Assembly (NCBI GenBank): GCA_903838415.1
Contig: CAILYI010000211.1
Coordinates: 1-64,000, forward strand
From: an uncultured Anaerolineae bacterium
GTDB lineage: Bacteria > Chloroflexota > Anaerolineae > Anaerolineales > Villigracilaceae
Direction of reading: 5' to 3'
DNA length: 64,000 nt
How positions within the stretch are numbered: position 1 is the stretch's first letter; each line of letters opens with the position of its first letter. A program made the translations under genes and the position numbers. Under the pieces are notes generated by a model that saw only the letters and a list, made by a program, of their open reading frames with translations, was not told where the DNA came from and made no database searches. Below, piece by piece: positions 3,171 to 49,806 of this stretch.

Positions 3171-3287
3171 GTTCTATTCCAGGATGGTTCGGGAAACTGC
3201 GAAAAAATGCGTTTGCTGTCGGCGGTGGAAAAAAGTGAGGGGTTCAAGTGTTACCTTGAACCCCATTGTACAAGAAACGTTGCAGAA

Positions 3288-4706: not shown

Positions 4707-4813
4707 TGTAATTCTCCTGATTTAAGGAACATGAATACATCACGCCAGCGTTACTGGCGGAAAACACAGGATCGTTTTTGTATTGGGGAATATCCCGTTT
4801 ATGGGAAAAGTGC

Positions 4814-4926
4814 GCCGCACCAGGCTATTGCGAAAATCCGGAAAACTGGTGCGGCTCACTTCCGCTGCATTACCAACCTGCCCTCTGCCGCCACCCAAAA
4901 CGGAAATTGGCAGAGGGACAGGTTGG
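4814..4926 (-). terminator. Two consecutive hairpins after the methyltransferase gene
   Basis: Hairpin one pairs GCCGCACCAG (4814-4823) with CTGGTGCGGC (4846-4855). Hairpin two pairs CCAACCTG-CCTCTGCC (from 4873) with GGCAGAGG-CAGGTTGG (to 4926) with one bulged position. They lie between the methyltransferase gene and the MFS gene, on the side where minus-strand transcription would end or be attenuated. No strong U tract is visible, so attenuation or mRNA processing is as likely as full termination. Confidence 0.5.
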
Positions 4927-4947
4927 AAGTGGGGTGGCTACGCAACG

Positions 4948-6276: not shown

Positions 6277-6287
6277 ACTGATCTCTC

Positions 6288-6908: not shown

Positions 6909-7004
6909 ACTTGCTCCTTTAGATTAGGGTTCAGCAGTTTTAGAAACGCGAGATGAATATCGCGTTTGAATTCAAAGCAAGAGAATTCTGACGTTACAAC
7001 GGGA

Positions 7005-7808: not shown

Positions 7809-7861
7809 ATATCACTCTCCAAAGTCGGATTAAAAACAAATCCCAAAGGTCTAAAAAACCT

Positions 7862-8569
7862 TCAGGATTTAGGGGTTGCAAAATCTGCATACGTTACGGT
7901 TTCACCGGGAGCCACTACCATGAACTCATCATCCCAGGGCCCATTGACCATCTTCTGCACCAGCGCAGGCGAACCATCAATCTCTTCAAAGTTCAAGTCA
8001 AACGATTTCGCCGTGGTTTGGGCATATTCGCGGAAACGCTCAATGTCGTATTGCCCGGTATTAATGAAGGCCAGCCGCCGGTAATTCTTCAAAATCAAGC
8101 TCGTCATACGTCGCGCCCTGGCTTCACCGTACTTTTCAACCAGTTGTAGATGTTCTTCAAACGGCGTATCGCCTGCTTCAATCCAGCCTTTGGTCAGATA
8201 ATAAGTGCCTGGCTCCTTCCTGGCCTGCTCTTTATAAGCGGCACACGAACCAAGGAAAATCGCGATACAATCATCCACGCGAGGGATAACCAGGTGGGCA
8301 TTTCGCGCCTGCAAGCCGACTATCGCCATTGAGCATAACCCATACCCGAGCAGAAGAACATCCGCGCTGGCACTAGACTCGTCAATTTTGGCCTGGAGCG
8401 CCTCCCGGAGTTTTTCCGGGCGCAGGTGCAGGCCAAAATCCAGCACTTCATGTTCCACATCCACTGGTAACCAGCCCAGCATTTCCTCGATGACGGTGGC
8501 GCAGGCAATCACGCGGCGTTTCGCCGTATACAGGGCAGCCCAGCGGTCATATTCGGCAGGAGAATTCAA
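7862..8569 (-). CDS. DUF1638 domain protein of corrinoid methyltransferase loci
   Basis: A protein of about 235 residues of the DUF1638 family, which recurs in methylamine/methoxy-compound methyltransferase operons; its biochemical role is not established. Recognisable stretches are RVIACATVIEEM near the N-terminus, LLLGYGLCSMAIVGL, IPRVDDCIAIFLGS and the C-terminal VVAPGETVTY. The reading frame stays open to a TTG at 8620, but a good minus-strand promoter (-10 at 8625-8630) would start the transcript at about 8618, so I place the start at the TTG at 8567-8569. An internal ATG in frame is lacking, so this start remains uncertain. First gene of the minus-strand demethylase operon. Confidence 0.78.
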   Translation of the reverse strand: MNSPAEYDRWAALYTAKRRVIACATVIEEMLGWLPVDVEHEVLDFGLHLRPEKLREALQAKIDESSASADVLLLGYGLCSMAIVGLQARNAHLVIPRVDDCIAIFLGSCAAYKEQARKEPGTYYLTKGWIEAGDTPFEEHLQLVEKYGEARARRMTSLILKNYRRLAFINTGQYDIERFREYAQTTAKSFDLNFEEIDGSPALVQKMVNGPWDDEFMVVAPGETVTYADFATPKS

Positions 8570-8624
8570 GGCATCGTTTCCATTCTCAATGGTAGAATCA
8601 ATCCAGGTTAGGTGATACAATCAT

Positions 8625-8668
8625 GTTATACACTTATATAGATAAGATGTCCAGTGACTTATGTCACT
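8625..8668 (-). promoter_or_regulatory. Promoter of the demethylase operon with operator-like palindrome
   Basis: On the minus strand TGGACA and TATAAC (8625-8630) are separated by 17 bases, a good sigma-70-type promoter. Just upstream lies a perfect inverted repeat, AGTGAC-TTAT-GTCACT, at 8653-8668. The neighbouring gene encodes a GntR/HutC-type regulator, so the palindrome is a plausible operator for it, placed to control both divergent units. The assignment to that regulator is inference. Confidence 0.6.
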
Positions 8669-8806
8669 TTTTCGACAATCTCCTATTTCAGGGTGCAACG
8701 CGCCAACTATTTTAGCCACATCCCGATTAATGGGTTCCCTTTGCTCTGAACACGCCCCGTCTGGCATGCCATAACGCAATACCAGGCCTCATTATGAGAT
8801 ACTTTT

Positions 8807-9571
8807 ATGACCCAGCGACCCAAGAATAAAGTCCTGCAAGAAACTGCCTCCATCGACCGGGATTCCTTCGAACCGGCTTATGCCCAGCTGGCCAATATCC
8901 TGCGTCAAAGCATGGCGGAGGGCCTGCTGCGCCCTGGCGACCAACTTCCCTCCGAAGCGCAGCTTGTCAAGCGATACGGCGTTAGCCCGATGACCGTGCG
9001 CCGCTCCATCAACATCCTGGTTGACCAGGGCGTGGTGATTGCCGAACAAGGGCGCGGTACTTTCGTCAAACCGGTGGCGATGAAAGCCGCCACCTTTCAT
9101 CTTGGACAGTTGGAAAACCTGTTTGGCGGCGCCACTGTCCAGTTGCTTGAAGCCCGCATCGTTGCCGCCGATGAGCGCGTGGCGCGCAAACTGGCAATTA
9201 AAGAAGGAAAACGCACGATTTATATCCGCCGCTTATTATGGAATAACGATGAACCCGCTTTTTATCACCGTGAATACCTGATCTACGACCCCACCCGCCC
9301 AATCGTTGAGGCGGAATTGGAAGTGACCGCCCTGCAACAATTATTCAGCGGAAGCAGCGAATCCCTGCTCAAGCATGGGGAAATCAACATTGAATCCACC
9401 CTGCTCGATGAGGAAGAAGCCTGCCTGCTCAAGACCCCTCAACCGATGGCCGCCTTCTGTTTCGAGCACCTTTTCTACGACTTCGACAACCATCCCGTCA
9501 GTTGGGGCTGGTTTATTGGCCGCGCCGACCGCATGCGCTTCACGACCCAGGTCGGATTATTGTTAGATTGA
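8807..9571 (+). CDS. GntR-family transcriptional regulator, HutC/UTRA subfamily
   Basis: A 254-residue one-component regulator. Residues about 20-90 form a winged helix-turn-helix of the GntR type (AYAQLANILRQSMAEG, LPSEAQLVKRYGVSPMTVRRS, then a wing ending in GRGTFVKP). Residues about 110-250 form a UTRA ligand-binding domain (RTIYIRRLLWNNDEPAFYHREYLIYDPT), which senses a small molecule. It is divergent from the demethylase operon, and its stop codon overlaps the next region by one base with an ATG, so it is co-transcribed with the second corrinoid protein. Likely role: substrate-responsive control of the locus, perhaps through the palindrome at 8653-8668. The ligand is unknown. Confidence 0.92.
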   Translation: MTQRPKNKVLQETASIDRDSFEPAYAQLANILRQSMAEGLLRPGDQLPSEAQLVKRYGVSPMTVRRSINILVDQGVVIAEQGRGTFVKPVAMKAATFHLGQLENLFGGATVQLLEARIVAADERVARKLAIKEGKRTIYIRRLLWNNDEPAFYHREYLIYDPTRPIVEAELEVTALQQLFSGSSESLLKHGEINIESTLLDEEEACLLKTPQPMAAFCFEHLFYDFDNHPVSWGWFIGRADRMRFTTQVGLLLD

Positions 9572-9585
9572 TGCCGGAGATGTCC

Positions 9586-10242
9586 ATGGAAAATCCCGAT
9601 TCCCCCAACCGCCTATCTGAACTGGTCGCCGCTCTTGACGAAGATGCCGTCCTTGCGCTTGTGCAGGAACGTCTTTCTGCTGGAAGCGACCCGTTCCAAA
9701 TTATCGAAGAATGCAACGCCGGAATGCGCGAAGTTGGCATTAAATACGAAACGGGTGAGTATTTTGTCTCCGGGCTGATCATGTCTGGGGAGATTTTCCG
9801 CGAGGTGGTCGAGCTTCTCCAGCCGCTGCTCGAAAAACGCGCTGACGGACACTCATTCGGCGTGGTCCTGATCGGTACAGTCTCCGGCGATATCCACGAT
9901 ATTGGCAAGAATATGTTGGGGATGCTGCTTTCCTGCTACGGGTTTACTGTAATCGACCTGGGCGTGGATGTCCCCCCCGCAAATTTTGCCGAAAAGGCGA
10001 TCGAAATCCATCCAGATATTGTTGGGTTATCGGGCTTAATCACCGCATCCTTCGAGAAAATGAAAGAAACCGTGACGGTCTTGCGTGAAAAAGCCACCGC
10101 AGCCAACGTCAGTTTCCCCATCCTGATTGGCGGCGGCATGATCGATGAACAAGTCTGCCAATACGTTGGGGCGGATTACTGGGAAAAAGACGCCATGCAA
10201 GGCGTTCGGGTGTGCCAGATGTTGATGAGTGGAAATAAATAA
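9586..10242 (+). CDS. Second corrinoid (B12-binding) methyl-carrier protein
   Basis: A 218-residue paralogue of the corrinoid protein at 6.3 kb with the canonical base-on motif Asp102-x-His104-x-x-Gly107 in GDIHDIGKN. A helical cap domain (residues 1-88) precedes the Rossmann-type B12 domain (about 92-218), which has DLGVDVPPANF, GLSGLIT and IGGGMI. Three in-frame ATG codons lie at 9571, 9580 and 9586; I chose 9586 because GGAG at 9575-9578 gives normal spacing. No methyltransferase gene follows it. It may therefore be charged by a methyltransferase encoded elsewhere, or be an alternative partner of the enzymes in the opposing operon. Confidence 0.92.
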   Translation: MENPDSPNRLSELVAALDEDAVLALVQERLSAGSDPFQIIEECNAGMREVGIKYETGEYFVSGLIMSGEIFREVVELLQPLLEKRADGHSFGVVLIGTVSGDIHDIGKNMLGMLLSCYGFTVIDLGVDVPPANFAEKAIEIHPDIVGLSGLITASFEKMKETVTVLREKATAANVSFPILIGGGMIDEQVCQYVGADYWEKDAMQGVRVCQMLMSGNK

Positions 10243-10298
10243 CCGGCGAGACCCCGGGATACTTTGAGCGGCTACCGAGACAAATTGATAAGTAAGTA

Positions 10299-10342
10299 CT
10301 ACCGGCTAAAGCCGGTAGCTTTGGGAAGCGGCTGAAAGCCGC
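10299..10342 (+). terminator. Tandem GC-rich hairpins after the corrinoid protein
   Basis: Two short perfect hairpins stand side by side: CTACCGGCT-AA-AGCCGGTAG (10299-10318) and GCGGCT-GAA-AGCCGC (10328-10342). A third, CCTGCCT-AA-AGGCAGG, follows at 10505-10520. No U tract is present, so these may stabilise the mRNA end or be a REP-like intergenic repeat rather than act as intrinsic terminators. I see no gene in 10243-10546. Confidence 0.45.
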
Positions 10343-10546
10343 CTAAAGCCCTTTGTGAAACATGGATAGGCATGGCCATGGCTTCTTCTCACAGTGGAAG
10401 TACTGATACATGACCAAGATGTACATCCTTTACCATGCCAAAAATGCAATTATTATGGGATAAGCAAGTTTTGCAAAATATCACTATTGTGGTGTTGAAA
10501 ACGGCCTGCCTAAAGGCAGGGGTTTTGAACCCAATATATAGACAAT

Positions 10547-10574
10547 AAAAAGCCACCCGCGCGGGTGGCTTTTT
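10547..10574 (-). terminator. Bidirectional intrinsic terminator
   Basis: A perfect 9-bp stem (GCCACCCGC/GCGGGTGGC) is flanked by five A on one side and five T on the other. It serves the minus-strand CDGSH gene that ends at 10599 and could also stop transcription coming from the corrinoid gene. Confidence 0.85.
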
Positions 10575-10598
10575 CTCTGAACCTGAGCCAGCAAACAA

Positions 10599-10799
10599 TC
10601 AGTCGGTCTTCTTTTCAGCGGAGGCCGCAATCTGAACGATGACCGGGCCGACTTCACCCTCACACTTAGCGTGGGAGAGGTCGCAGATGGGGAATTTTTC
10701 GGACTTATAGCAGCGGCAGAGCATGATCTTTTCGTCGGGTTCGATGGTGACGATGTGGCGAATGTGTCCGTTCTTTTCAGCAGAGGTTATTTCGGGCAT
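10599..10799 (-). CDS. Small CDGSH-type iron-sulfur protein, variant motif
   Basis: A 66-residue protein with the CDGSH iron-sulfur ligand set Cys28-x-Cys30, Cys39 and His43 in CRC-x8-C-DLSH: spacing and Pro-x-Cys-Asp match the CDGSH family (C-x-C-x2-S-x3-P-x-C-D-G-S-H), with Gly replaced by Leu. Such proteins hold a redox-active and often labile [2Fe-2S] cluster. An open frame continues upstream to 10865, but AGGAG eight bases before the ATG at 10797-10799 decides the start. It stands alone with its own terminator. Electron-transfer or cluster-sensing function is inferred from the family only. Confidence 0.75.
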   Translation of the reverse strand: MPEITSAEKNGHIRHIVTIEPDEKIMLCRCYKSEKFPICDLSHAKCEGEVGPVIVQIAASAEKKTD

Positions 10800-10988
10800 T
10801 AGGCACTCCTTGGTGCAAGATAATATCGAGTATTTCTGAAGGAAAATTATAATGTATCCCAGCAAAAAAATCGCCGTTTATTCGACAGAATTAACTCCGG
10901 AAATCAGTAGCACCTTGCACAACCCCCTGACTGCCTAACATACTTTCCAAACAATCAAAGATTGCCACCCAAGTGTAGAACTTGTTTC

Positions 10989-11021
10989 AAAAAACCGTTT
11001 TCTCAGTGAAAACGGTTTTTT
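10989..11021 (-). terminator. Intrinsic terminator of the SpoIIE-type gene
   Basis: Six A, a stem of AACCGTTTTC pairing with GAAAACGGTT around a TCAGT-like loop, and six T. It lies seven bases past the stop of the minus-strand gene at 11028. Confidence 0.85.
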
Positions 11022-11027
11022 GTTCCT

Positions 11028-14000
11028 TTACAGGCCGCGCCTGAGCGCGATCAAAGTAATGTCATCTGAAACGGGGGTATCCGCGACAAAGTGATCGACC
11101 GCCGCCTCAATCTCATCCAGGATAGCTTCGGTGGTCTCGACGGTTGAAGAGGTCAGCACATTCTGCAAACGTTCATCGCCAAACATGTCACCGGCAGCCG
11201 AAAAAGCTTCGGTAATGCCATCCGTGTAGAAAATGAGCCGGTCGCCGGGAGCCAGGTCAATGCTGCGTTCGAACATTTCAGCGTGTTCGATCACACCCAG
11301 GGCGATACCGGTGCGGGTGAGTAGTTCCGGCTTGAGCGCTTCGACAACGCCCGCGCGCAATAACATGGGCGGATTGTGACCGGCGTTGGCGTAGGTGAAA
11401 CGCCCGGTTTTCGGGTCCAATGCGCCGTAGACAGCGGTGACAAACATGCCCTGTTCGCAATCGGGATACAGCAGATCGTTGACCTGGCGCAAGGCTTCGG
11501 CGGGAGAATCGGTCTGCAAAACGGCAGCGCGGACGAGGGTGCGGGTCAGGGCCATGAAGAGCGCCGCCGGAATGCCCTTATCCGCCACATCGGCAATGAA
11601 CAGACCCAGGCGTCCATCCGCCAGATCGATCACGTCATAAAAGTCGCCGCCCATTTGCAGAGCAGTGCGCCAGCGCGCGGATAAGCCCCAACCGGCTGGC
11701 GCGACGATGTTTTTGGGGATGAACGTCTCCTGGATTTGCCGGGCAAGCTGCACCTCGGTCTCCAGGCGCTCGCGGCTGACCATTTCCTGGTGAAAGATGT
11801 CGTTTTGAATGGCAAGCGCAATCTGTTGGGCCACGCCGTTCAGGATTTCGAGCCGCCGGTTGCGGAAGCGGCGCCCTCCCATCGCTTCCTCGATCAGCAA
11901 AACGCCGAAAGTCTCTCCTTTGAGCATGAGCGGCAAAGCCACCAACAGCCGGTCATCACTATTGGTAACGGAATCAAGTTCTTCGGGAGTGCAGGGGCCA
12001 ACCGTCAGCCAATGTTCAGGCCCGAGGTGCGCATCCCGGCACATCACGATTTGCCCCAACTCCAACGCGCCATCCAAAAGCGGAAACTCGCCACGGTTGA
12101 AGGGCCGCCAGAGTGCCTCGCGCATCTCTATGGGCAAGCCATATTCCTGCGCCGGGCGCAGCAGCCCAACGGCGGCATCCCAGGTATAGATGGCGGCGCG
12201 CTCCACGCCGACCAGGATCGGCATGATGCGGACGATGGTCCCGAGAATCTCATCCAGCTCCGACAGGCTGACCACCGCCTGGGCCACCTGCAACAAGGCC
12301 GCCGAGGCATAAGCCTGTTCCTGCGAGGTATCATACAGACGGGCATTCTCAATCGCAACGGCGGCATAGCTGGCAAACGTGGTCGCCATGACGCGGGCCT
12401 CGTGACCGTAGCGCCCGGAAGTGTGGTGCGCAAGAGTCAGCACGCCCACCGACTGATCGCCGACACGCAGGGGCACGGCGATCGCCGAGTGGTCGGCGTC
12501 AAACCCGGCGGCCTGCGCGGAGGGGCCAAGGGGATCGGTTGGTTTGCGGATGAACGGCTGCCGTGAAAGCAAAGCGGTGCCCAGCATGCCGGTCGCTTCG
12601 GGGTAATCCTGGCGGGCACGTTCGAGCTCATCAGCGCGCGCGCCGTGCACCGCGGCGCAGTAGATATCTTCGTCATCGAGCAGCCAGATGGCGGCAATGT
12701 CGGAGGGCAGGTTGCGCTCCAGCTCAGTCAAAACCGCATCCAGCACCTGGTCAAGGCTGGCGCTGGCGGAAAGCAGCACAGCCACCTCGCGCAGACTGTC
12801 GCCGACCTGCCGCCGCCACTTTTCAGTAGTGTACAAATCCGCGTTGCGAATGGCCGCCGCAATTGAATCGCCCAAAGTCTCGATGATCAGCCGGTCCTGG
12901 TCGGAGAAAGCCTCCAACTGATCCGACTGCACATCCAGCACGCCGTTGACCTGTCCGTTGAAAATGAGCGGCACGCACAATTCGGAGCGCGTGTTGGCGG
13001 GCGGCAGCGGCGATGGAATGTAGCGCGGCTCTTCATCCACGTTATTGACCAGCAGCGTCTCGCCATGCCGGGCCGCCCAGGGGATGAGGCCTTCGGCATC
13101 ATCCAGATCAAAAATATAGCCCTCCAGCGCCGCGGAACGCGCGCCGGACCCGGCCTCGTAATGAATTTGGCGGCGATTGGGGTGGACGGTGAATAGGTGC
13201 ACATAGGGGAAATCAAAATGCGTGGTGATCAGCCCGGCCACTTCCTGCATCAGCTCGCGCAGGTTCAAAATAGAGGTGATTTGTTTACTGACTTCCCCCA
13301 CCACGCGCAGCTGGCTGGCCTGACGACGCAAGTCGTTGTACAGCTTCGCGCCATCAATCGCCATCGCCACGCTGTCGGCCAGGGCGCGCAGCACAAGCAT
13401 ATCATAAGGGTGGAAAGCATTCAGCATGTCAGACTGCACATCCAGCACACCCACCACGCGCTCCTCGATCTTGAGCGGCAGCGCCAGCTCGGCCTTGGTC
13501 TCGGGCAGGCAGTCCACCAGGCGGAAACGCTGATCGGCGCGCACATCATTCGCCAGCAGCTCTTCACCCGTCATTGCGGCATAACCCACCAGCCCCTGGC
13601 CCAACTTCACATCAAAAGCCAGTTCCTTCGGGCTGCCCTGGCGGCGCGTGGCGCCCCCGGTGCTGGAGCGAAAAGTGAGTCTGTTTTGTCCGGGTTCCAG
13701 CGTAAAGATGCCGACATAATAATATTTGAACATGGACTGAATCTGGCGCGTCACCTTGCGGGCCAATTCATCGAGATCGGGTTCGTTGGCAATTTGCGCC
13801 GAAACCTTGCGCACCAGGCCCAACTGCCCCAGGCGCCAGCGCTCCACGTTGACACGGTGCCAGGCAATCAGGGCGATGGAGGCCGTGCGAGTCAGGCCCA
13901 CCAAAAAGTCGATTTCGCGGCGCGAGAATTTCCTGCCGTCAAAGCGGCGGATTTCAACCACCCCGAGTCCGAAGTCCTCATGCCGCAGCGGAACAGCCAG

Positions 14001-16512: not shown

Positions 16513-16609
16513 CACACGCCTCCGATTTCCCAAAGTATATCAGAATGGGGCAAAATGGCGCTATTTTTCCCCACACGCGCGGATTGTAAGCAGGCTGGAA
16601 AGCGTTATG

Positions 16610-16826
16610 GTTCGTCATTGAAGCATTACGGCGCATCATTGAAGCATTATGATCGATCATTGAAGCATTCTGGTCGGTCATTGAAGCATTAATGCCGGTC
16701 ACTGAGGGATTATAAGCGGTCGTTGAAGCATTCTGGTCGGTCAGTGAAGCATTATGGTTCGTCGTTGATGGTTCATGGTACTTGTTTCACCAACAAAACA
16801 TTCTGGTCGATCATTGAAGCATTCAG
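16610..16826 (-). repeat. 21-bp degenerate tandem repeat block (about 9 units)
   Basis: Eight contiguous 21-bp units run from 16610 to 16777 and a ninth follows an interruption at 16806-16826. On the plus strand the core is TCATTGAAGCATTATG, so the minus strand reads CATAATGCTTCAATGA, the same core as the block at 41.75 kb. The block lies about 100 bases upstream of the CpaF gene and in the same relative orientation as the copies that precede plus-strand genes at 41-47 kb. Function unknown. Confidence 0.85.
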
Positions 16827-41727: not shown

Positions 41728-41749
41728 GCGGTTGAACCCTGACACAGCT

Positions 41750-41896
41750 CATAATCCTTCACAGATGGACCATGATACATCAACGACGAACCATGAACCA
41801 TCAACGATGGACCATAATGCTTCAATGATGCATCGTAATGCTTCAACGACGCGCCATAATGCTTCAATGATGAACTATGATGCTTCAATGGCGCAG
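41750..41896 (+). repeat. 21-bp degenerate tandem repeat block (7 units)
   Basis: Seven contiguous 21-bp units, starting at 41750, 41771, 41792, 41813, 41834, 41855 and 41876. Consensus core CATAATGCTTCAATGAT plus four variable bases; internal steps of 7 bp are evident (CATAATG, CTTCAAT, GATGAAC). Same family as the block at 16.6 kb in reverse. The region 41728-42333 contains no gene. Confidence 0.88.
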
Positions 41897-42042
41897 GCGC
41901 ATGGGTTTGTTCTGATGTAAAAGGTTGCGGTTTGGTTTTTGCGGGCCAGGCCAGGTCATATATGCAGGCAAACGCCCAACAGCGCTGAATTTATCCGATT
42001 TTGCGATAATTCGTAACGCCGTCTCCGAGGCGATGTTTGCTA

Positions 42043-42176
42043 TATAATCTTCCCTTTAGTGGTGGGCAGTGATTTTCGCCGGGGTTCTCCGGCAGCGGTC
42101 TGGGTGGATTAGCTTTATTTCCCGATAAGTAGTTTTGTCTAAAATTCAATTATTTAAGCAGCGTTCGATGACGCTC
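42043..42176 (+). promoter_or_regulatory. Dispersed promoter/leader module, copy A
   Basis: TATAAT at 42043-42048 is followed by GGTGGGCAGTGATTTTC, a hairpin CGCCGG-GGTTCT-CCGGCA, GCGGTCTGGGTGGATTAG and TTTATTTCCCGATAAGTAG. The last part shares GCGTTCGATGACGC-like sequence with copies B and D (45.4 and 47.3 kb). The -35 element seen in other copies is not conserved here. It stands about 170 bases upstream of the broken Spo0M-like gene. Confidence 0.65.
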
Positions 42177-42333
42177 AGTGCTTGCGGTATTTGGAATACC
42201 CTTATTCCTATCGCTACTCCGGTAATTTTTCTGGACGCTGGGCAAGTCTGCGAACGCAAACTGCGATGGCGCTAAAATACAAAACTGGTAGTGAATAACC
42301 AAGGAAAAAATTCATCAAATCAGGAGATTTATC

Positions 42334-42833
42334 ATGTCCTTCATTTCGAAAATCAAACAGCAGCTTGGCATAGGTACAGTAAAAATAAAACTCGATGCAC
42401 CTAATTTCATTACACTCCCCGATTTTAATAAGAAAGGAATAAATGGCAAGGTTATCCTGGAAGAACAAAGCAGCTAAACAGTGAAATCCATCAAGATTAA
42501 TCTCCTTGAAAAAAGAAGATTGAAAGCAGTGCTGATAATAGCAGCTCAAGTAGTTCATACACAGGTCAATCAGTGGGCGGGGAACAAATTAAATTAATAT
42601 GCTGGACAAAAATCGATGAGTCTTTTGAAATCAAACAGGGTGAAAAAAGAACTATCAAATTCACATTGAATCCACCCGCTGTACAATTAAGGCCTGATCC
42701 ATTTTCACAAAACCATGTGATTTCAGCCGGAGAAATAGATTCTCCGATATGGTATGAAATTCAAGCAATCGCCGACCTCGACCATGTAACGCTAGATCCG
42801 ACAGCCGCTGCAGGAATCATGATCCAATTTTAA
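42334..42833 (+). pseudogene. Broken Spo0M-like (SpoOM/arrestin-fold) gene
   Basis: AGGAG seven bases upstream of ATG 42334 opens a frame that matches the Spo0M N-terminus (MSFISKIKQQLGIGTVKIKL, GINGKVIL). It stops after 47 codons at TAA 42475-42477, where a CAA to TAA change would restore reading into VKSIKINLLEK. A further shift of one base is needed at the A6 run 42509-42514 to reach the C-terminal part, which reads GGEQIKLICWTKIDESFEIKQGEKRTIKFTL and ends at TAA 42833 in SPIWYEIQAIADLDHVTLDP. Both halves therefore belong to one Spo0M-like protein of about 165 residues, disabled by one nonsense change and one frameshift. Spo0M regulates sporulation or cytokinesis in Bacillus; role here unknown. 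Confidence 0.78.
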
Positions 42834-42922
42834 ATTGGGTTTTTTAGCCAAATGCAAAATTTCATGCGACTTTTTATCGAGTTGCAACAGTGCCTTTGTT
42901 AGAGTTATGCATCTGGCGTTCA

Positions 42923-42973
42923 TCACAGCCGCCCAACCCAGCGTCCAGTATACGCTGGGTTGGGCGGCTGTGA
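42923..42973 (+). terminator. Exceptionally long perfect hairpin (22-bp stem)
   Basis: A 22-bp perfect inverted repeat at 42923-42944 and 42952-42973, with seven-base loop CCAGTAT, followed by GTTTTTCC. It lies 90 bases past the broken Spo0M-like gene, so it could be its terminator. The stem is longer than usual for terminators, so it may also be a trace of a mobile repeat. The rest of 42834-43351 shows no gene. Confidence 0.65.
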
Positions 42974-43351
42974 GTTTTTCCTGCTTCCAAACTGAATCCA
43001 CGCCCACCCTGCACCACTCAACATAAACCGTTGGGACAAAGATATAATGCATCCAGTCACGAATTGCGATTTTCATTTTTTCAATAAAAAAGCGCAATTT
43101 GTGAGTGACCGCGTGAGGTATCGTCATGGGGCGCTTACAATGCGTTCGTTGAGTAGGCAGGTTTCTCTGGCTACTGTTTCAAAACCAACAAGTGGCAACA
43201 TCTGCTTGGGAAAATAGTTCTGACAGCGAACTGCCTTCGGTATAATAATATTATTCGGAGCTACTCAACCTTCTGGCATTTTAGAGCGCAGTGGCAATAG
43301 AATGTTTTGACATCTTTTATCCATAGTTTACCCATAAAAAGGAACCCTGCC

Positions 43352-43633
43352 ATGTCTTTTCAAGCTTATCTCGACAACATCGAAGAAAAAACCGGCAAAA
43401 CCCCCAATGATTTTATTGCGATGGCAAAAGAAAAGGGCTTTGACAACCCGAAGACAAAAGCAGGGGACATCGTTGCATGGCTTAAAGAAGAATACGGTCT
43501 GGGCCGTGGTCATGCCATGGCGATTGTTTACGTTATCAAGAATGGCGCAGAAATCGGGGATAAACACGTCGGGGCGGATGGAGTTCATCGTGACGAGTCG
43601 AAGGTTTTGAAGTTGGATGGGAAAAAGAAATAA
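43352..43633 (+). CDS. DUF4287 domain protein
   Basis: A 93-residue protein with a DUF4287 domain (SFQAYLDNIEEKTGKTPNDFIAMAKEKGF, then DIVAWLKEEYGLGRGHAMAIVYVIK). This is a small helix-rich fold common in bacteria, function unknown; it sometimes stands next to DUF5655. The ATG at 43352 with GGA upstream is preferred to a longer frame. It stands alone between non-coding stretches. Confidence 0.88.
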   Translation: MSFQAYLDNIEEKTGKTPNDFIAMAKEKGFDNPKTKAGDIVAWLKEEYGLGRGHAMAIVYVIKNGAEIGDKHVGADGVHRDESKVLKLDGKKK

Positions 43634-43808
43634 TAGCATTCGCCGGACAAGTGCGGGGCGTTGCCCACACTTGCGGAGAAGCGACCCCAAGCAGCGGATT
43701 CGGCGTCTGGCGGCTTTATCTGCCAGGTCCCGCTCTTGCCAGTACCGCCTGCCGTTAGCCTGCTCCTTATAAATTATTGATAAAACCAAGAGCGATAGAT
43801 AAGTGAAT

Positions 43809-45269
43809 ATGAGAGAAAATGCCACTATGCCAAAGCATACCAATCAACTACGCAATCAAATGGAAGAGAAGGAAAAACGGGCGGCAGAATTAATCCTTGC
43901 CAACAAAGAACTCGCCTTTCAGAATGAAGAGAAAGAAAAACGGGCAGCAGAATTAATCCTCGCCAACAAAGAACTCGCCTTTCAGAATGAAGAAAAAGAA
44001 AAACGGGCGGCAGAATTAATCCTTGCCAATAAAGAACTCGCCTTTCAGAATGAAGAAAAAGAAAAACGGGCGGCAGAATTAATCCTCGCCAACAAAGAAC
44101 TCGCCTTTCAGAATGAAGAGAAAGAAAAACGGGCGGCGGAATTAATCCTCGCCAACGAAGATATTGTTCGCCGCCTGCAAAACATTCATGCGCTGCATAA
44201 AATTGATCAAGCCATCGTAGGCAGCCTGGACTTGAATCTGACCTTACACGTTGTCCTTGAACAAGCTATGGCCGAGTTACATGTAAGCGCCGCGGCCATC
44301 TTGCTTTTAAATCCATATTCCCCAATATTAGAATTCGCCGCTGGTATTGGCTTTCGGAGTAAAGCGATTGAGCGTTCACGCCTGCGGCTGGGTGAGGGAC
44401 TCGGCGGGCGCGCCGCGTTGGAAGAAAGGACAACGAGCATCATCAATCTGCCTGAGAACCGCGATCAATTTGTCCGCGCCCCGCTTCTGGCAAATGAAGA
44501 ATTCATCACTTACTTTAGTACACCGCTCATTGTCAAAGGTCAAGTCAAGGGTGTTTTAGAAGTCTTTCATCGCTCCCCGTTTATACCCGATCAGGATTGG
44601 CTGAATTTTCTTGAGGTTCTGGCTGGACAAACCGCCATTGCCGTAGATAGCGCCACTCTTCTTTCTAAATTACAACGTTCCAATAGAGAGTTATTCAATG
44701 CATATGATTCCACGATTGAAGGCTGGTCACATGCACTGGATTTGCGCGACAAAGAGACTGAAGGTCACACACAGCGCGTTACGGAAATGACAATGCGACT
44801 TGCACGCGCTGCAGAAATCACCGAAGAAGAATTGGTACACATTCGACGTGGTGCGCTCTTGCACGATATTGGGAAGATGGGCGTACCCGACTACATCCTT
44901 CTCAAGCCAGATAAACTGACCAACGAAGAATGGATTTCCATGCGCAAACATCCCATTTTTGCCTTTGAATTACTGTCGCCTATTGCGTACTTACGCCCTG
45001 CGCTAGATATTCCATATTGTCACCACGAAAAATGGGATGGGAGCGGTTATCCACGCGGGCTAAAGGGCGAGCAAATCCCACTGGTGGCGCGTCTTTTCTC
45101 GATAATAGATGTATGGGACGCTCTTCGCTCTGACCGCCCCTATCGTCAAAGTTGGTCAAAGGAGAAAGTAATAGAACACATCCAATCACTCTCTGGAACT
45201 CACTTTGATCCGAAGGCGGTAGATTTGTTCTTGAAGATGATCAACGAAGATGATTCCGACTCGTTGTAA
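43809..45269 (+). CDS. GAF and HD-GYP domain protein with five 21-residue coiled-coil repeats
   Basis: A 486-residue signalling protein. Residues about 18-120 are five copies of the 21-residue EEKEKRAAELILANKELAFQN unit (abbreviated), a heptad-rich coiled coil. A GAF domain (about 130-290) follows, then an HD-GYP domain (about 305-480) with HALDLRDKETEGHTQRV, LLHDIGKMGVPD and HHEKWDGSGYPRGLKG, the residues expected of an active c-di-GMP phosphodiesterase. Other starts at 43803 (GTG) and 43827 (ATG) are possible; no strong ribosome-binding site decides. It sits in the repeat-rich accessory region. Confidence 0.9.
   Translation: MRENATMPKHTNQLRNQMEEKEKRAAELILANKELAFQNEEKEKRAAELILANKELAFQNEEKEKRAAELILANKELAFQNEEKEKRAAELILANKELAFQNEEKEKRAAELILANEDIVRRLQNIHALHKIDQAIVGSLDLNLTLHVVLEQAMAELHVSAAAILLLNPYSPILEFAAGIGFRSKAIERSRLRLGEGLGGRAALEERTTSIINLPENRDQFVRAPLLANEEFITYFSTPLIVKGQVKGVLEVFHRSPFIPDQDWLNFLEVLAGQTAIAVDSATLLSKLQRSNRELFNAYDSTIEGWSHALDLRDKETEGHTQRVTEMTMRLARAAEITEEELVHIRRGALLHDIGKMGVPDYILLKPDKLTNEEWISMRKHPIFAFELLSPIAYLRPALDIPYCHHEKWDGSGYPRGLKGEQIPLVARLFSIIDVWDALRSDRPYRQSWSKEKVIEHIQSLSGTHFDPKAVDLFLKMINEDDSDSL
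43863..44160 (+). repeat. 63-bp tandem repeat, five units, inside the HD-GYP gene
   Basis: Each unit encodes EEKEKRAAELILANKEL plus AFQN. Copies differ by a few silent changes such as ctcgcc/cttgcc, so the array is recent or homogenised and could vary in length between strains. Confidence 0.85.
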
Positions 45270-45311
45270 AATCAAAAGCGGCTTTCCTCGTACGATTGTC
45301 CAATGACTGAC

Positions 45312-45374
45312 CAGAATGCTTTACTGATGAACCAGGATTCATCAACGATGGACCATAATGCTTCGTTGGCCTGG
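45312..45374 (+). repeat. 21-bp repeat block (3 units) before module B
   Basis: Units start at 45312, 45333 and 45354: CAGAATGCTTTACTGATG, CAGGATTCATCAACGATG and CATAATGCTTCGTTGGCC. Same family as at 41750-41896 and 16.6 kb. Confidence 0.75.
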
Positions 45375-45397
45375 CGGCCAGCGGCCCTTCGGGAACC

Positions 45398-45572
45398 TTT
45401 GATTTTGCTTGCATTGGGGGTGGCGTTCGTTGTAAAATAATCTCATTAACGGTGGGCAGTGAGTTTGCCGGGTTTTCCGGCAGCGGTCTGGGCGGATTAG
45501 TTTTATTTCACGATATGTAATTTTGGTTAAACGGATTCGATTACTTGAGCAGATGCGATAACGCGTAGATGT
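45398..45572 (+). promoter_or_regulatory. Dispersed promoter/leader module, copy B
   Basis: TTGCAT (45409-45414), 18 bases, TAAAAT (45433-45438), then GGTGGGCAGTGA, a GCCGG-GTTTT-CCGGC hairpin, GCGGTCTGGGCGGATTAG, and a tail TTGAGCAGATGCGATAACGC. It is nearly identical to copies C and D. It lies about 150 bases upstream of the HXXEE membrane protein gene. I see no gene in 45270-45724. Confidence 0.72.
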
Positions 45573-45724
45573 ACGCCAGGTCGGTTGTTTCGCGGAAATA
45601 TTTCCAACCGGATGCTTTTCGACGGTAGCACCTGCAAGGATACACATTCGCCGCGTCCCTTTCAAGCACATGCTATTAACGTCAGCCGTTTGCCTATCAA
45701 TGATAGAAACAGGAGTGTAAAACT

Positions 45725-46324
45725 ATGACTACTGGCTTAAATAATGAAAAGGGAATCTCAAATACTTTTTCGCATTTTAACAGCCAAATACCTTTGCAAA
45801 TAGCACTACTTTTCGCCCCACTCGCTTATTGTTTTCACCAGATAGAAGAAAGTACTGGCTCGTTCAGAACCTGGAGACTCAGGCATTTTCCAAACAACAA
45901 TTCCCTGCCAGTTGAATATGTTTTTGTTATCGTAACGGCACTGACGCTTTTTCTAATTATTTTGTTCTCAATCCGAAAGAGCAAACCCACTGCCCAATTC
46001 GTTGTATTATTTCTCATGGCTACGCAAGTTCAAAACGCGCTTTATCATGTTAGCGCAGGGGTTTATTTCACGGATTATAGCCCAGGCACAATAACTGCTT
46101 TATTGCTGTATCTGCCCGTCAATTTCTATATTGTTACAAAAGCAATCAGTGAAGGTTGGCTCACCAAGTCAACCATTTTGGCTATTTTTATTTTGGCCGG
46201 GATCATGTTTTGGGCTTTCGAGTTATTGGGTCCTGCCTTGATAGCGATATTTTTCGGATTGGGGCTGGTATATGTAATTGCTTCAGAATTAAGAACGAAT
46301 TCCCAGAAACAGAGGCCGCTTTAA
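45725..46324 (+). CDS. HXXEE-type integral membrane protein
   Basis: A 199-residue membrane protein with about six hydrophobic segments. The family pattern His-x-x-Glu-Glu appears as FHQIEES near residue 38, and a second conserved stretch QNALYHV lies near residue 100. Members are membrane proteins with a putative metal or substrate site; function unknown. Base composition is visibly more AT-rich than the flanking core genes. Translated from the ATG at 45725; the TAA at 46324 is followed by a hairpin at 46376-46406. Confidence 0.75.
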   Translation: MTTGLNNEKGISNTFSHFNSQIPLQIALLFAPLAYCFHQIEESTGSFRTWRLRHFPNNNSLPVEYVFVIVTALTLFLIILFSIRKSKPTAQFVVLFLMATQVQNALYHVSAGVYFTDYSPGTITALLLYLPVNFYIVTKAISEGWLTKSTILAIFILAGIMFWAFELLGPALIAIFFGLGLVYVIASELRTNSQKQRPL

Positions 46325-46375
46325 CATCTTTTTTGGCATGCTTGATTTATACGGACAAGTCCCGTTTGTTAAAAA

Positions 46376-46406
46376 GGTGCCAGTCATCTTTAAGATGACT
46401 GGCACC
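46376..46406 (+). terminator. Hairpin after the HXXEE gene
   Basis: A 13-bp perfect stem GGTGCCAGTCATC with GATGACTGGCACC around a five-base loop. The U tract is weak, so termination strength is uncertain. Confidence 0.6.
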
Positions 46407-46424
46407 TGGCTTTCGCGGCGCGCG

Positions 46425-46480
46425 CGTAATGCTTTGTTGGTGAATGGTGGACGATGAACAATAATGCTTCACTGATCGAC
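46425..46480 (+). repeat. 21-bp repeat remnants before module C
   Basis: CGTAATGCTTTGTTGGTGAA (46425-46445) and AATAATGCTTCACTGATC (46460-46480) match the 21-bp family. The 14 bases between them are two-thirds of a unit, showing 7-bp steps. Confidence 0.65.
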
Positions 46481-46580
46481 CTTTGATTTTGCTTGCACCG
46501 GGGGTGGCGTTCGTTGTACAATAATTTCATCAGTGGTGGGCAGTGATTTGGGGGGGACGGTTTTATTTCCCAGTAAATGG
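46481..46580 (+). promoter_or_regulatory. Dispersed promoter/leader module, copy C (shortened)
   Basis: TTGCAC (46493-46498), 18 bases, TACAAT (46517-46522), then GGTGGGCAGTGAT. The hairpin and GCGGTCTGGG core present in the other copies are missing, and the sequence resumes at GGTTTTATTTCCCAG. So the hairpin segment can be lost while the promoter stays. About 150 bases upstream of the next lipoprotein gene. Confidence 0.65.
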
Positions 46581-46727
46581 ATAGACACCCAAGGCTGGGA
46601 CGCTGTGCTCCAGCCCTTGCTTTTCGTCTTGCCCCCCGCATCAAACCTTATGTCATTGGACAACGAGAAAATCTTAGCAGAATTCAGACTGGCACATTCA
46701 AGCTTTTCTTACCCAAAGGAGCATAAA

Positions 46728-47153
46728 ATGAAGAAAGTCTTGATTTTATGGGTAGCAGGCATCTTGCTCTTGACCGCCTGCGCAGCCCCTGTTTCCTCCA
46801 GGATGGTAATCACATTTACTGTTGACGAAAAATGCACAATGCAGGGACCAACTACAATCGCAGCCGATAAGGTTATCCCCGTGGACATCGTTGGAAATAT
46901 CAAGGAACGCGGCAATATCGGTTTGGCAATTTTAACCCTTGACCCAGGCAAAACAATAAAAGATCTTCAGGCCCTGCAATCTGCGGACCAACCATCCTGG
47001 TCGCAAAAAATAGCTTTCTACAGCTTTCCATCAGACGACAAACCCTATTCAATAGATTTAAGCGTATCTCACGGTCCGATCTACTTCGTATGTTTTTATG
47101 ATTCTCCCGTAACGAAGATAGGGGCTTTGGGACCGGTGGAAGTAAAAGAATAG
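46728..47153 (+). CDS. Small lipoprotein of unknown function
   Basis: A 141-residue lipoprotein: signal peptide MKKVLILWVAGILLLTAC with lipobox LLTAC, then a compact domain rich in beta strands with two Cys (residues about 42 and 125). AAGGAG seven bases upstream fixes the ATG; a longer open frame is ignored. Other parts, such as VITFTVDEKCTMQGPTTIAAD, recall cupredoxin-like surface proteins, but I cannot confirm a family. It lies downstream of module C. Confidence 0.75.
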   Translation: MKKVLILWVAGILLLTACAAPVSSRMVITFTVDEKCTMQGPTTIAADKVIPVDIVGNIKERGNIGLAILTLDPGKTIKDLQALQSADQPSWSQKIAFYSFPSDDKPYSIDLSVSHGPIYFVCFYDSPVTKIGALGPVEVKE

Positions 47154-47207
47154 TCGCGGCAAGGTTTCTGTGTTGAAGCCTGCGGTTTGGATTATTGTTT
47201 GATGGAT

Positions 47208-47277
47208 CATAGTGCTTTACCGCCAAACCGTGAACCATGAACGATGAACGGTGGACGATAGTGCTTCATTGATCGAC
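47208..47277 (+). repeat. 21-bp repeat block before module D
   Basis: Units at 47208-47228, 47229-47249 and 47257-47277; the first and last keep the core AGTGCTT. The seven bases GGTGGAC (47250-47256) between the second and third equal one-third of a unit. Confidence 0.7.
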
Positions 47278-47452
47278 TTTTGATTTTGCTTGCATGGGGG
47301 GCGGCGTTCGTTGTACAATAATCTCATTAGCGGTGGGTAGGGTTTTTGCCGGGTCTTCCGGCAGCGGTCTGGGTGGATTGGTTTTATTTCCCGATATGTG
47401 GTTTTTGTTATTCAATTCGATGATTTGAGCAGATTCGATAACGCGCAGATGG
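47278..47452 (+). promoter_or_regulatory. Dispersed promoter/leader module, copy D
   Basis: TTGCAT (47290-47295), 18 bases, TACAAT (47314-47319), GGTGGGTAGG, hairpin TGCCGG-GTCT-TCCGGCA, GCGGTCTGGGTGGATTGG, TTTATTTCCCGATATG, and TTGAGCAGATTCGATAACGC. This is the most complete copy. It lies about 125 bases before the unrecognised gene at 47577. No gene is seen in 47154-47576. Confidence 0.72.
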
Positions 47453-47576
47453 ATTCATTTTGTTTTGAACAGGATGGTATGCGGGGTCTGCTCGGTAACG
47501 GGCAGCTCTATCGCGATGGCGGCTGAATGCAGTATAGTTTTCCGATTTTTGTTAATCGAAAGTTAAAGGAGAAACA

Positions 47577-48746
47577 ATGACCACAGTCAATGCAACTTTT
47601 CACATTCCAAAACTTATCGAACAAGGTTTATCAAATGGAACTTATGAACGAATAGGCGGGGTAATACGTGAAGCAAATTCTAAACAGATTGTTGCTTGGT
47701 TGCGTGAAGGGAGTGATGCGGGCAAGGTATTAGAGTCAGTTTTGCCGAATGTGGGGGCTGTGTCCGGCATTCTTAATCTGGCAGTTTCAACAATTGGCTT
47801 TGCTGTCGTTCTAAAACGCTTAGGAGTCATTGAACTACAACTTCAACAAGCTCAAGAAGTTCTCCAAACAATTGGTTATAAGATTGATTTATCTTTTTAT
47901 GCTAACTTTCGTTCCGCGCTCGATTTAGCAATCAATGCTTTTACAATGGACAACTCTGAAAACCGCAAAATGAGTGCAATACAAGCGATTAATCGTTTTT
48001 TGGAAGCAGAACATCACTATACCAACCTCACAGATATAGAAATTAGCAATGGCAGTCAGGTGGCTGATGAATACTTATCAACATTGTGCTTAGCCTATGT
48101 TACTGAAGTGCGTTGCTATTTGGAATTAGAGGAGATTAATACTGCACGCCGTCGTTTGCAAGAAGGTATCGCTATACTTCGACCACGTTTTGAAAAGTAT
48201 ATCAGCACTTTATTGACATCAAACCCAGCTGCCTATTTGCACCCAAGCCTAAAGGAACAGGTAGGGCTAAAACGCTTGACTAAAGTTTATCAATGGTTAG
48301 AACCAAAGTTAGATGAGAGCGATGTGTTTGAATTGCAACGAGAAAATTTATTCAAATTAGCTCAAAACCCCAGTGAGTGGACAAATTCACTCCCACAAGC
48401 GATTAGTATACCGAAAGAAAGTAGTACAGCATTGGCAAATGTGTTTAATGGTTTAGCCAAACAATCGAAAAAGCTTATAGAGACCTTACCATCAAAGTCG
48501 AAAACGCACGTTAGTACTTCTAAAGCAGTAACGTCATCTTTCGAAACAGATATTTATGGTCGTTTGCCAGCAATAATTGAATTAATAGAAACGCTGGTTG
48601 AAGATGATAATCGTTTGGCGATGTATGAATCAGAAATAGAGGCAATACATCGGGTAGGAATGAGTTTTCAAGAGTGGCGGCAATTGACGCCTTCGTCTAC
48701 TACCCAAGAAAATGGAGCGGATTTAATTTACATCACTATCTCATAG
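47577..48746 (+). CDS. Unrecognised 389-residue protein with a hydrophobic helical segment
   Basis: A predicted soluble or membrane-touching protein of unknown family. A hydrophobic stretch rich in Gly and Val (VGAVSGILNLAVSTIGFAVVL) occupies about residues 58-80, followed by a helical heptad region (LGVIELQLQQAQEVLQTIG), suggesting membrane insertion or oligomerisation. The rest is helical and charged, with no cysteine-rich or catalytic motif that I can see. ATG at 47577 has AAAGGAG upstream. Codon use and base composition are much more AT-rich than the core genes, which points to recent transfer. Directly downstream of repeat and module D. Confidence 0.8.
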   Translation: MTTVNATFHIPKLIEQGLSNGTYERIGGVIREANSKQIVAWLREGSDAGKVLESVLPNVGAVSGILNLAVSTIGFAVVLKRLGVIELQLQQAQEVLQTIGYKIDLSFYANFRSALDLAINAFTMDNSENRKMSAIQAINRFLEAEHHYTNLTDIEISNGSQVADEYLSTLCLAYVTEVRCYLELEEINTARRRLQEGIAILRPRFEKYISTLLTSNPAAYLHPSLKEQVGLKRLTKVYQWLEPKLDESDVFELQRENLFKLAQNPSEWTNSLPQAISIPKESSTALANVFNGLAKQSKKLIETLPSKSKTHVSTSKAVTSSFETDIYGRLPAIIELIETLVEDDNRLAMYESEIEAIHRVGMSFQEWRQLTPSSTTQENGADLIYITIS

Positions 48747-48818
48747 TCGAATTAAAACGCGCCCAATTATGGCCCGCTGGACAATTGCTCACCCTACCGC
48801 ATAGCCCGCACTGGTGAG

Positions 48819-48894
48819 TGCATCGTATGTAATGGCGATTACATCGTATGTAATTGACATTACATACGATGTAACGGTCATTACATACGATGCA
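48819..48894. promoter_or_regulatory. 76-bp inverted array of four operator-like sites
   Basis: Four copies of TTACAT-cgt/acg-ATGTAA or close variants, themselves palindromic, with centres near 48825, 48845, 48867 and 48888, i.e. 20-22 bp apart. The first two and last two are inverted around a four-base centre (48855-48858), so the whole segment can fold into a long hairpin. This could be a cooperative operator array, a terminator-like hairpin of the preceding gene, or a replication/transfer site. It lies 80 bases past the 389-residue gene. Confidence 0.7.
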
Positions 48895-48987
48895 ATGACG
48901 ATTGCAAAGCATGCTACGACGTGGGAAACGTGTCAATCAGGCCAAAATGCCTGAATATCAACCCCAAACGCCAAAAAAGGAGAGGAA

Positions 48988-49344
48988 ATGGCGAAGAATC
49001 AGTCAATCCGCATCCGTCCTTTCGTTCTGCAAAACGACATGGAAGCCTTCATCGCCCTGCAAGCCATCCCCAATTACACCCCCGCCAATACTGCCTACAC
49101 CCAATCCACCCTGCAAACCAACCTCGATGCCATGAACGCTGCCCGGCAGTTGGAAATCAACACGCAAAACGCGCTGGATGCCGCGCGCGACGCCGCAGCC
49201 GCCGCAGAGTGGAATTTCCATAACGGCATGCTGGGGGCCAAAGACCAGGTCATCGCGCAGTTTGGCGACGACTCGAACGAGGTGCAGGCCATGGGGCTTA
49301 AGAAGAAGTCCGAGCGCGCCCGGCCCACCCGCAAGAGCGCGTAA
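48988..49344 (+). CDS. Small Ala-rich helical protein, hypothetical
   Basis: A 118-residue protein, long helices with repeated Ala (DAARDAAAAAEWNF), ending in GDDSNEVQAMGLKKKSERARPTRKSA. The end matches a small hypothetical family known from Chloroflexota, Cyanobacteria and other environmental phyla, function unknown. ATG at 48988 has AAGGAGAGG at good spacing. Its base composition is back to the GC-rich norm, so it marks the right edge of the AT-rich accessory region. Confidence 0.72.
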   Translation: MAKNQSIRIRPFVLQNDMEAFIALQAIPNYTPANTAYTQSTLQTNLDAMNAARQLEINTQNALDAARDAAAAAEWNFHNGMLGAKDQVIAQFGDDSNEVQAMGLKKKSERARPTRKSA

Positions 49345-49540
49345 ACAGCTCAACACAAAATCCCGGTCTGCCAACACAGGCCGGGGTTTTCCTTTTTCGG
49401 GCCAGGTTTGACGCTACTGCAAAAACCTTCTTACCCACAAAGGGTGCGAAGGAATACCAAGAAAAATCTTTAATGCCTTTCCTTTGTGTCACTTGTGTTT
49501 AATAAAACCGCGATAATCCGTGGCGAAAAAAGCAATTGCA

Positions 49541-49606
49541 CCACAGATAAGAGCAGATGAACGAAGATGTTTTTCAAAATCTGCTTTTATCCGCGTTCAT
49601 CTGTGG
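49541..49606. repeat. CCACAGAT...ATCTGTGG imperfect inverted repeat
   Basis: CCACAGATAAGAGCAGATGA pairs imperfectly with the segment ending GCGTTCATCTGTGG. The element resembles the one around 18756-18831. The stretch 49345-49806 holds this and no gene I can support; a TATAAT at 49755-49760 may be the thiolase promoter. Confidence 0.6.
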
Positions 49607-49806
49607 TGAATAATCCCAATCGCATCACACATCAACACCAATGAACGCCGCGTTATTCGTGGCTGATTTGGGTTTCGCTCGTAGCCCAGGCCGCAAAACC
49701 CTTGCCCCGCAGAAGATATCTGAGCAGTATTAAGAAAGTTGTGAGTGCCCCGATTATAATTAGGAGGCCAAAGCAAGTCTCGTAACCCAACACCAGAGGA
49801 GAAGCC

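What the first reader, a model, noticed from the sequence alone, without database searches (positions are those of the whole stretch)
42043..47452. A promoter plus hairpin leader cassette repeated four times in front of unrelated genes
At 42.0, 45.4, 46.5 and 47.3 kb nearly the same 100-175 bp recur. Three copies carry a -35-like TTGCAN, 18 bases and -10 TANAAT, then GGTGGGCAGTGA, a GCCGG hairpin, GCGGTCTGGG and TTTATTTCC. Each lies about 125-300 bases upstream of a different plus-strand gene. One copy lost the hairpin but kept the promoter. The pattern suggests a mobile or gene-converted regulatory element, perhaps with a structured RNA leader.
Basis: seen in the sequence. Interest (0 to 1): 0.78.

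Follow-up and report, generated by a model that had tools for sequence, protein, structure and literature searches.

The report
Repeated promoter platforms for captured genes
The same short promoter-and-leader stretch occurs at least 16 times in this bacterial genome, each in front of a different gene, and it looks like a ready-made start switch at places where an integron-type gene-capture system drops in foreign genes, rather than an RNA sensor.

Summary
The four copies (c1-c4) belong to a family of 16 strong copies in the bin, 12 of them on 12 other contigs, plus one in sister species G002. A same-strand reading frame follows in 16 of 17; in C188 the contig ends first. The constant part is a -10 element, a variable spacer of near-constant length and roughly 35-75 transcribed bases. 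The GCCGG hairpin occurs only in c1, c2, c4 and G002, and RNA structure is not supported.

The window copies sit in an island (41739-49753) whose flanks are 93-94% identical to G002, while the genes inside differ and a copy stays beside the left flank. Sister species carry true integron integrases; G002 has canonical attC sites. Some leaders end in the cassette junction GTTRGGY, and one resembles G002's attI. Some arrays hold group II intron ends at attC-like R'' boxes.

Best reading (0.5): integrase-less Pc-attI-like platforms, copied many times. Against: c1-c4 show no junction, G000 shows no IntI or attC, and intI-linked attI regions lack the element. A merely dispersed promoter leader remains possible.

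The parts
42034..42135 (+). copy c1 of the element (-10 TATAAT at 42043-42048); first copy after the DUF3048 gene
   Evidence: model hit R1 72.5 bits, R2 63.8 bits
45423..45522 (+). copy c2 (TTGCAT-18-TAAAAT; -10 at 45433-45438)
   Evidence: R1 74.1 bits, R2 65.6 bits
46507..46582 (+). copy c3, short form without the hairpin (-10 TACAAT at 46517-46522)
   Evidence: R1 59 bits, R2 55.2 bits
47304..47404 (+). copy c4 (-10 TACAAT at 47314-47319)
   Evidence: R1 76.8 bits, R2 70 bits
42078..42093 (+). GCCGG hairpin of c1 (also 45467-45481 in c2, 47348-47362 in c4); found only in the C211/G002 type
   Evidence: sequence; absent from 13 of 16 G000 copies in alignment A4
47472..47521 (+). probable relic of the 3' end (domain VI) of a group II intron, between c4 and its gene; same relic at cassette starts elsewhere
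   Evidence: 91% to the C152 repeat; intron|exon ...CGCGAT|GGC, 97%; domain assignment by eye from C126
41739..49753 (.). gene island between the DUF3048 gene and the thiolase gene
   Evidence: flanks 93-94% identical to G002, inside differs; the two genes adjacent or one gene apart in G001, G004, G006 and G008
42334..42833 (+). apparently broken gene downstream of c1 (47-codon ORF, then out-of-frame 86-codon ORF)
   Evidence: Pfam only a sub-threshold DUF7428 match
45725..46324 (+). gene downstream of c2, HXXEE protein
   Evidence: PF13787 56.1 bits, cut-off 25
46728..47153 (+). gene downstream of c3, lipoprotein-like by eye, no Pfam family
47577..48746 (+). gene downstream of c4, 389 aa, no Pfam family
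41739..41907 (+). 21-base tandem repeat upstream of c1; related stretches 45301-45364, about 46441-46480 and 47238-47275 precede c2, c3 and c4

Best explanation
The element is the expression part of an integron-type gene-capture platform: a promoter (Pc-like) plus a conserved leader, followed in several copies by a site at which gene cassettes are joined (GTTRGGY, as at attI and attC). Inferred mechanism: an IntI integrase, encoded elsewhere or lost from this bin, joins incoming cassettes at such sites, so each captured gene sits behind a promoter whatever it encodes. In the window, platform and gene alternate (c1-genes-c2-gene-c3-gene-c4-gene), like the published cassettes that carry an attI piece instead of attC. 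Shown: the repeated element, its orientation and position, different genes at the same locus in two close lineages with an element kept at the left end, integrases and canonical attC in sister species, group II intron relics at attC-like boxes in arrays behind other copies. Inferred: promoter activity, recombination at these leaders, integrase in trans. The window copies have lost or never had a recognisable junction.
For: 16 strong copies in G000 and one in G002. Same flanks, different genes, element beside the left flank in both lineages. IntI over the curated cut-off in G002, G003, G009 and, in a split frame, G004; the first three named integron integrase by NCBIfam; best PDB relative of G002's is IntI4, 2a3v. 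Three 129-130 bp canonical attC next to G002's intI. GTTRGGY on the gene strand in 7 of 21 leaders, 0 of 21 on the other strand, shuffle mean 1.25, reached in 0 of 2000 shuffles. C60 leader vs G002 intI-linked attI region: score 69, 0 of 2000 shuffles reach it. Group II intron domains V-VI antisense to cassette genes (RF00029 60.3 and 47.7 bits, gathering 40), with RYYYA at the exon side in 8 of 14 rows against 1 in 64 by chance, the R'' position that passages of PMC7923331 give for attC-targeting introns.
Against: No IntI over cut-off in G000 (nearest, on C249, 201 of 265 bits) and no IntI remnant beside the elements. No element match in the fetched parts of the four intI contigs, so the intI-linked attI regions seen in the genus lack it. 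No canonical attC in the scanned element-bearing regions, by a scan that finds all three in G002; an earlier scan gave 2 rows in 104 kb of arrays and 6 in 139 kb of chromosome. c1-c4 have no GTTRGGY, and GTTRRRY is only weakly enriched (9 of 21, mean 4.6, P 0.025; reverse strand 6 of 21). GTTRGGY was chosen after looking; with the 17 strong copies it is 5, P 0.0014, and after dropping near-copies 3 of 15, P 0.048. Of 84 leader-attI comparisons only C60 is strong; C173, C164 and C111 against G003 are reached by 8, 18 and 16 of 2000, uncorrected. No similarity to class 1 attI1 (pooled 205 of 500 shuffles). The element promoters are not in the sigma-70 consensus list. 14 of 21 leader tails folded as DNA: z -3.2 to +1.8.
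Confidence: 0.5

Rival explanations
1. Dispersed promoter-leader repeat: a favourable promoter region was duplicated by ordinary recombination between repeats in variable islands, and selection keeps it in front of incoming genes. It is no recombination site; GTTRGGY and attI likeness belong to neighbouring cassettes.
For: The conserved part covers about -10 to +75 only; upstream and downstream parts are mosaics shared by subsets of copies. c1-c4 have no junction. The fetched intI contigs hold no element match.
Against: 7 of 21 leaders hold GTTRGGY and C60 is similar to attI along the whole leader. By gene content, copies lie at chromosome-to-array borders in C60, C152, C173, window c1 and G002 C9.
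Confidence: 0.28
2. The element is a conserved end of an unrelated mobile element (a non-autonomous transposon, or one-ended rolling-circle transposition that drags adjacent genes).
For: Several copies near contig ends and mosaic neighbours; an IS91-like transposase (by eye) next to a tyrosine recombinase on C249; a serine-recombinase-like gene (by eye) about 4.5 kb from the G008 copy and an IS630-like gene (by eye) about 6 kb from the C204 copy.
Against: No sharp common boundary on either side in the alignments and no transposase noticed directly beside a copy; no dedicated search for terminal repeats or transposase families was made.
Confidence: 0.12
3. Structured cis-regulatory RNA leader (riboswitch-like) controlling a regulon.
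For: Conserved 5' transcribed region in front of many genes; a short GTG frame (VGSDFALVYGR-like, read by eye) runs through several copies (sequences).
Against: No stable fold and one pair of five with compensatory change, no Rfam match to the element, no shared pathway among downstream genes examined, hairpin absent from most copies, GTG frame not kept in the window copies.
Confidence: 0.05

Closest known systems
Integron platform (intI - Pc - attI)
   Same: promoter-like part facing cassettes, leader with GTTRGGY in some copies, varied same-strand genes behind it; sister species hold true integrons
   Different: no integrase next to the element, 16 strong copies in one bin, constant leader not found in the fetched intI contigs; no canonical attC found in G000 regions scanned
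Delta-attI-type gene cassettes (PMC12901181: abstract, first part of the introduction and section 5 read)
   Same: attI-like site and gene alternate, as platform and gene do in the window
   Different: published ones are in class 1 and 2 integrons, mostly with short attI pieces; here a promoter-bearing leader and, in the window, no intact junction
CALIN (cassette clusters without integrase; passages of PMC7923331 read)
   Same: cassette-like genes and attC-type intron relics without IntI
   Different: no canonical attC detected here; a repeated promoter-like element at array starts
Vibrio cholerae superintegron Pc (PMC3948777, abstract read)
   Same: cassette transcript starts upstream of the integration site
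   Different: a Pc overlapping the integrase promoter there

Membership tests
Integron (complete) | IntI integrase adjacent | tested here: not met
   none over cut-off in G000, no remnant beside elements; present in G002, G003, G009 and broken in G004
Integron (complete) | canonical attC (RYYYAAC ... GTTRRRY with paired L boxes) | tested here: not met
   0 in the element-bearing regions scanned (27 regions, 110 kb, several contigs only in part); all 3 sites of G002 C16 found as positive control; 1 row in 120 kb of chromosome
Integron attI | GTTRRRY junction before the first cassette gene | tested here: inconclusive
   GTTRGGY in 7 of 21 leaders, none of c1-c4
Integron attI | similarity to an intI-linked attI | tested here: inconclusive
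   C60 strong; C173, C164 and C111 weak; the rest none
Integron Pc | promoter facing the cassettes | tested here: inconclusive
   conserved TANAAT, variable 6-7 base discriminator, then CATTAG in most; not called by the consensus scan
Integron | integrase-mediated recombination at the site | not testable with these tools
   needs an assay
Delta-attI-type cassette | attI fragment with intact junction replacing attC | tested here: not met
   no GTTRGGY between any window copy and its gene
Structured RNA leader | conserved fold with covariation | tested here: not met
Group IIC-attC intron (array relics) | domains V-VI, antisense to the cassette genes | tested here: met
   RF00029 above gathering score in C134 and C60, opposite strand to the genes
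Group IIC-attC intron (array relics) | insertion at R'' of attC (TTGT/T) | tested here: inconclusive
   RYYYA at the exon side in 8 of 14 rows, one of the 14 a spurious reverse match
Group IIC-attC intron (array relics) | class IIC intron protein | not tested
   only the other intron type, on C126, has its protein here; class not determined

The most novel reading that the evidence does not exclude
A distributed integron: instead of one attI next to intI, the chromosome carries more than a dozen integrase-less Pc-attI-like platforms scattered over many loci, including chains of platform-gene-platform-gene, so captured cassettes are expressed at many places rather than only at the start of one array, with attC-targeting group II introns reshaping the sites.
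Probability: 0.33. Interest if true: 0.78.

Novelty: new variant of a known kind. Interest (0 to 1): 0.56.

Why it matters
Integron cassettes are mostly promoterless (abstract of PMC3948777), so expression of a long array depends on one Pc. A lineage that places the same promoter-like leader in front of many captured genes at many loci would be a different answer to the expression problem and would make integration in trans directly testable. Literature searches (PubMed Central, open licences; listings of at most 12 papers each) showed no title or abstract start describing such multiplied platforms; full texts were not checked beyond the passages named.

Tried and rejected
Structured RNA: rejected. 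GTG mini-frame (VGSDFALVYGR-like in C173, C164, C188 and others): read by eye, not kept in window copies, not pursued. Class 1 attI1 likeness: seen by eye, then chance in a pooled test. First attC scan demanded 6 of 7 R-box pairs and had no positive control; the second missed even G002's attC and was replaced. Two viral-contig pattern scans gave nothing; a genome-contig pattern gave one record, from a Magnetovibrio MAG, not looked at further. The upstream region shared by C173, C111, C152 and C60 gave no IntI match. Weak model hits in G007, G010, C64 and G170 were read and not accepted; weak hits in G048, G060 and G063 and G050 were not inspected; C39:2757 (24.7 bits) is unclear and left out of all counts. 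The four distant copies C114, G001, G008 and G005 (16.7-21.5 bits) were accepted by eye.
Full report
1. Observation. The four copies exist, on the plus strand, with -10 hexamers starting at 42043, 45433, 46517 and 47314 and ATGs 291, 292, 211 and 263 bases downstream.

2. Copy number. The window is contig C211 of a 5.67 Mb bin in 311 contigs, 98.99% complete and 8.63% contaminated. A sequence-only model of 9 copies (R1) gave 17 rows in G000 at E<=0.01, 16 of them at E<=3e-5. These 16 and the G002 copy make the 17 sequences of alignment A4: c1-c4, C173, C164, C188, C282, C111, C134, C39, C204, C257, C152, C60, C247 and G002 C9. Of 121 relatives searched, G000 included, 5 had any match and only G000 and G002 strong ones; of 152 family genomes 5 had a match at E<=0.005, again strong only in G000 and G002 (strict filters). 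In the genus, 7 of 11 genomes had a match at E<=0.05 with the 17-copy model R2. I accept G001, G008, G005 and G000:C114 as distant copies by eye, not G007, G010 and C64.

3. Anatomy. Aligned on the -10, the nearly invariant letters are TTnGnT(G/A)TAnAAT (the G is A in c1); the next 6-7 bases vary at near-constant length and are followed by CATTAG(C/T)GGTGGG(C/T)AGTGATTTT in most copies. A hexamer, a discriminator and a CA start is what a promoter gives (inference); upstream, a TnG(A/C) at 18 bases is weakly kept. The consensus scan does not list these promoters, and its 13 hits are near the 9.9 (sd 4.2) expected. After about +35 there are two types: an insertion of roughly 13-18 bases with the GCCGG hairpin in c1, c2, c4 and G002, and a short form in the other G000 copies; c3 lacks still more. 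This split fits a mixed bin: C211 is 94% identical to G002 at the thiolase gene, whereas a MurJ-like protein (by eye) on C152 is 67% to G002 and 75-79% to G010, G005 and G001.

4. RNA structure. Nine copies fold no better than shuffles; RNAalifold on A4 gives -0.72 kcal/mol and 5 pairs, one with a compensatory change; no Rfam family matches the element.

5. What lies behind the copies. In 16 of 17 A4 loci a same-strand reading frame follows (for C39 the 86-codon frame 8533-8793); C188 meets the contig end. Genes are unrelated as far as examined: HXXEE protein, short-chain dehydrogenase, F420-type reductase further on, and by eye lipoproteins, a LuxR-type HTH in G002 and unknowns. By gene content, C60, C152, C173, window c1 and G002 C9 lie where chromosomal genes end and cassette-like genes begin.

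6. The island. In G002 the DUF3048 flank (C9) and thiolase flank (C3) match the window at 93-94%; between them no similarity was found except the element, which stands beside the left flank in both. Both G002 contigs end inside the island, so its middle is unseen. In G001, G004, G006 and G008 the two genes are adjacent or one gene apart; G010 has further small frames between them, and in G003 and G005 the DUF3048 gene has other neighbours.

7. Integron context. G000 has no integron integrase over the cut-off; its best candidate, on C249, reaches 201 of 265 bits and lies beside an IS91-like transposase (by eye). G002, G003 and G009 have full-length IntI and G004 a broken one; the element model finds nothing in the fetched parts of those four contigs. 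G002's array has three 129-130 base attC sites, found by a scan that found none in the other 26 regions (110 kb in all) and 1 row in 120 kb of chromosome; attC sites with weaker R-box pairing would be missed. Arrays in G000 (C60, C134, C152 and others) have instead a repeat of about 150-170 bases, or parts of it, between small genes. One half is the antisense domain V-VI of a group II intron (RF00029, 60.3 and 47.7 bits against 40; a third copy 33.1, below it). In 8 of 14 rows the exon side reads RYYYA; one of the 14 rows is a spurious reverse match. This is the R'' position of attC that passages of PMC7923331 describe. The other half resembles, by eye, the 3' end of a second group II intron, whose reverse transcriptase gene is on C126 (RVT_1 and GIIM domains; D1D4-6 48.6 bits, just under the gathering 49); 14 of 17 such ends precede GGC. 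One relic lies in the window at 47472-47521, between c4 and its gene.

8. Do leaders contain an integration site? GTTRGGY occurs on the gene strand in 7 of 21 leaders (17 strong + 4 distant), none on the reverse (shuffle mean 1.25; 0 of 2000). Without two near-copies it is 5 of 19, P 0.004. With only the 17 strong copies it is 5, P 0.0014, and 3 of 15 after dropping near-copies, P 0.048. GTTRGGY was picked after seeing the sequences; GTTRRRY gives 9 of 21, P 0.025, with 6 of 21 on the reverse strand. The C60 leader aligns with G002's intI-linked attI region (score 69; best of 2000 shuffles 52); C173, C164 and C111 against G003 are reached by 8, 18 and 16 of 2000; for comparison the two attI regions with each other score 55, reached by 2 of 2000. 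None of c1-c4 shows the junction or the likeness. Resemblance to attI1 is chance.

9. Verdict. A repeated promoter-like leader at gene-insertion points in an integron-bearing genus is well supported. That the leader is, or was, an integration platform used by IntI in trans is my best explanation at 0.5. For c1-c4 themselves the site part is either decayed or was never there.

Noticed in passing
L078 (G000:C282) 4201-11726: Possible diversity-generating retroelement: RT gene (RVT_1) between two NACHT + FGE-sulfatase proteins with repeated stretches at about 6820-7049, 8554-8667 and 11509-11726; an element copy lies on the same contig. Adenine-specific changes were not tested.
   Followed up: partly
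L079 6318-8422, L080 4732-4900, L073 1772-3986: Inter-gene repeats that seem built from two group II intron 3' ends facing the neighbouring genes, one antisense at RYYYA and one sense before GGC; they may replace attC sites. L117 (C264) has the sense ends.
   Followed up: partly
L121 (G000:C126) 2803-4582: Group II intron with reverse transcriptase gene, source type of the sense intron relics.
   Followed up: partly
L180 (G008:C33) 3127-4782: Serine-recombinase-like gene (by eye) about 4.5 kb from the distant G008 copy, at the far side of a three-gene unit.
   Followed up: no
window 41739-41907, 16600-16823, 45301-45364: 21-base tandem repeats (AATGCTTCAATGATGGACCAT-like), also before each element copy in the island.
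   Followed up: no
window 43841-44155: 63-base tandem repeat in the GAF/HD-domain gene 43803-45269.
   Followed up: no
window 48808-48905: Long imperfect palindrome, 47-base arms, 85% complementary.
   Followed up: no
G000 as a whole: The bin seems to mix lineages: C211 is close to G002, C152 is not.
   Followed up: partly
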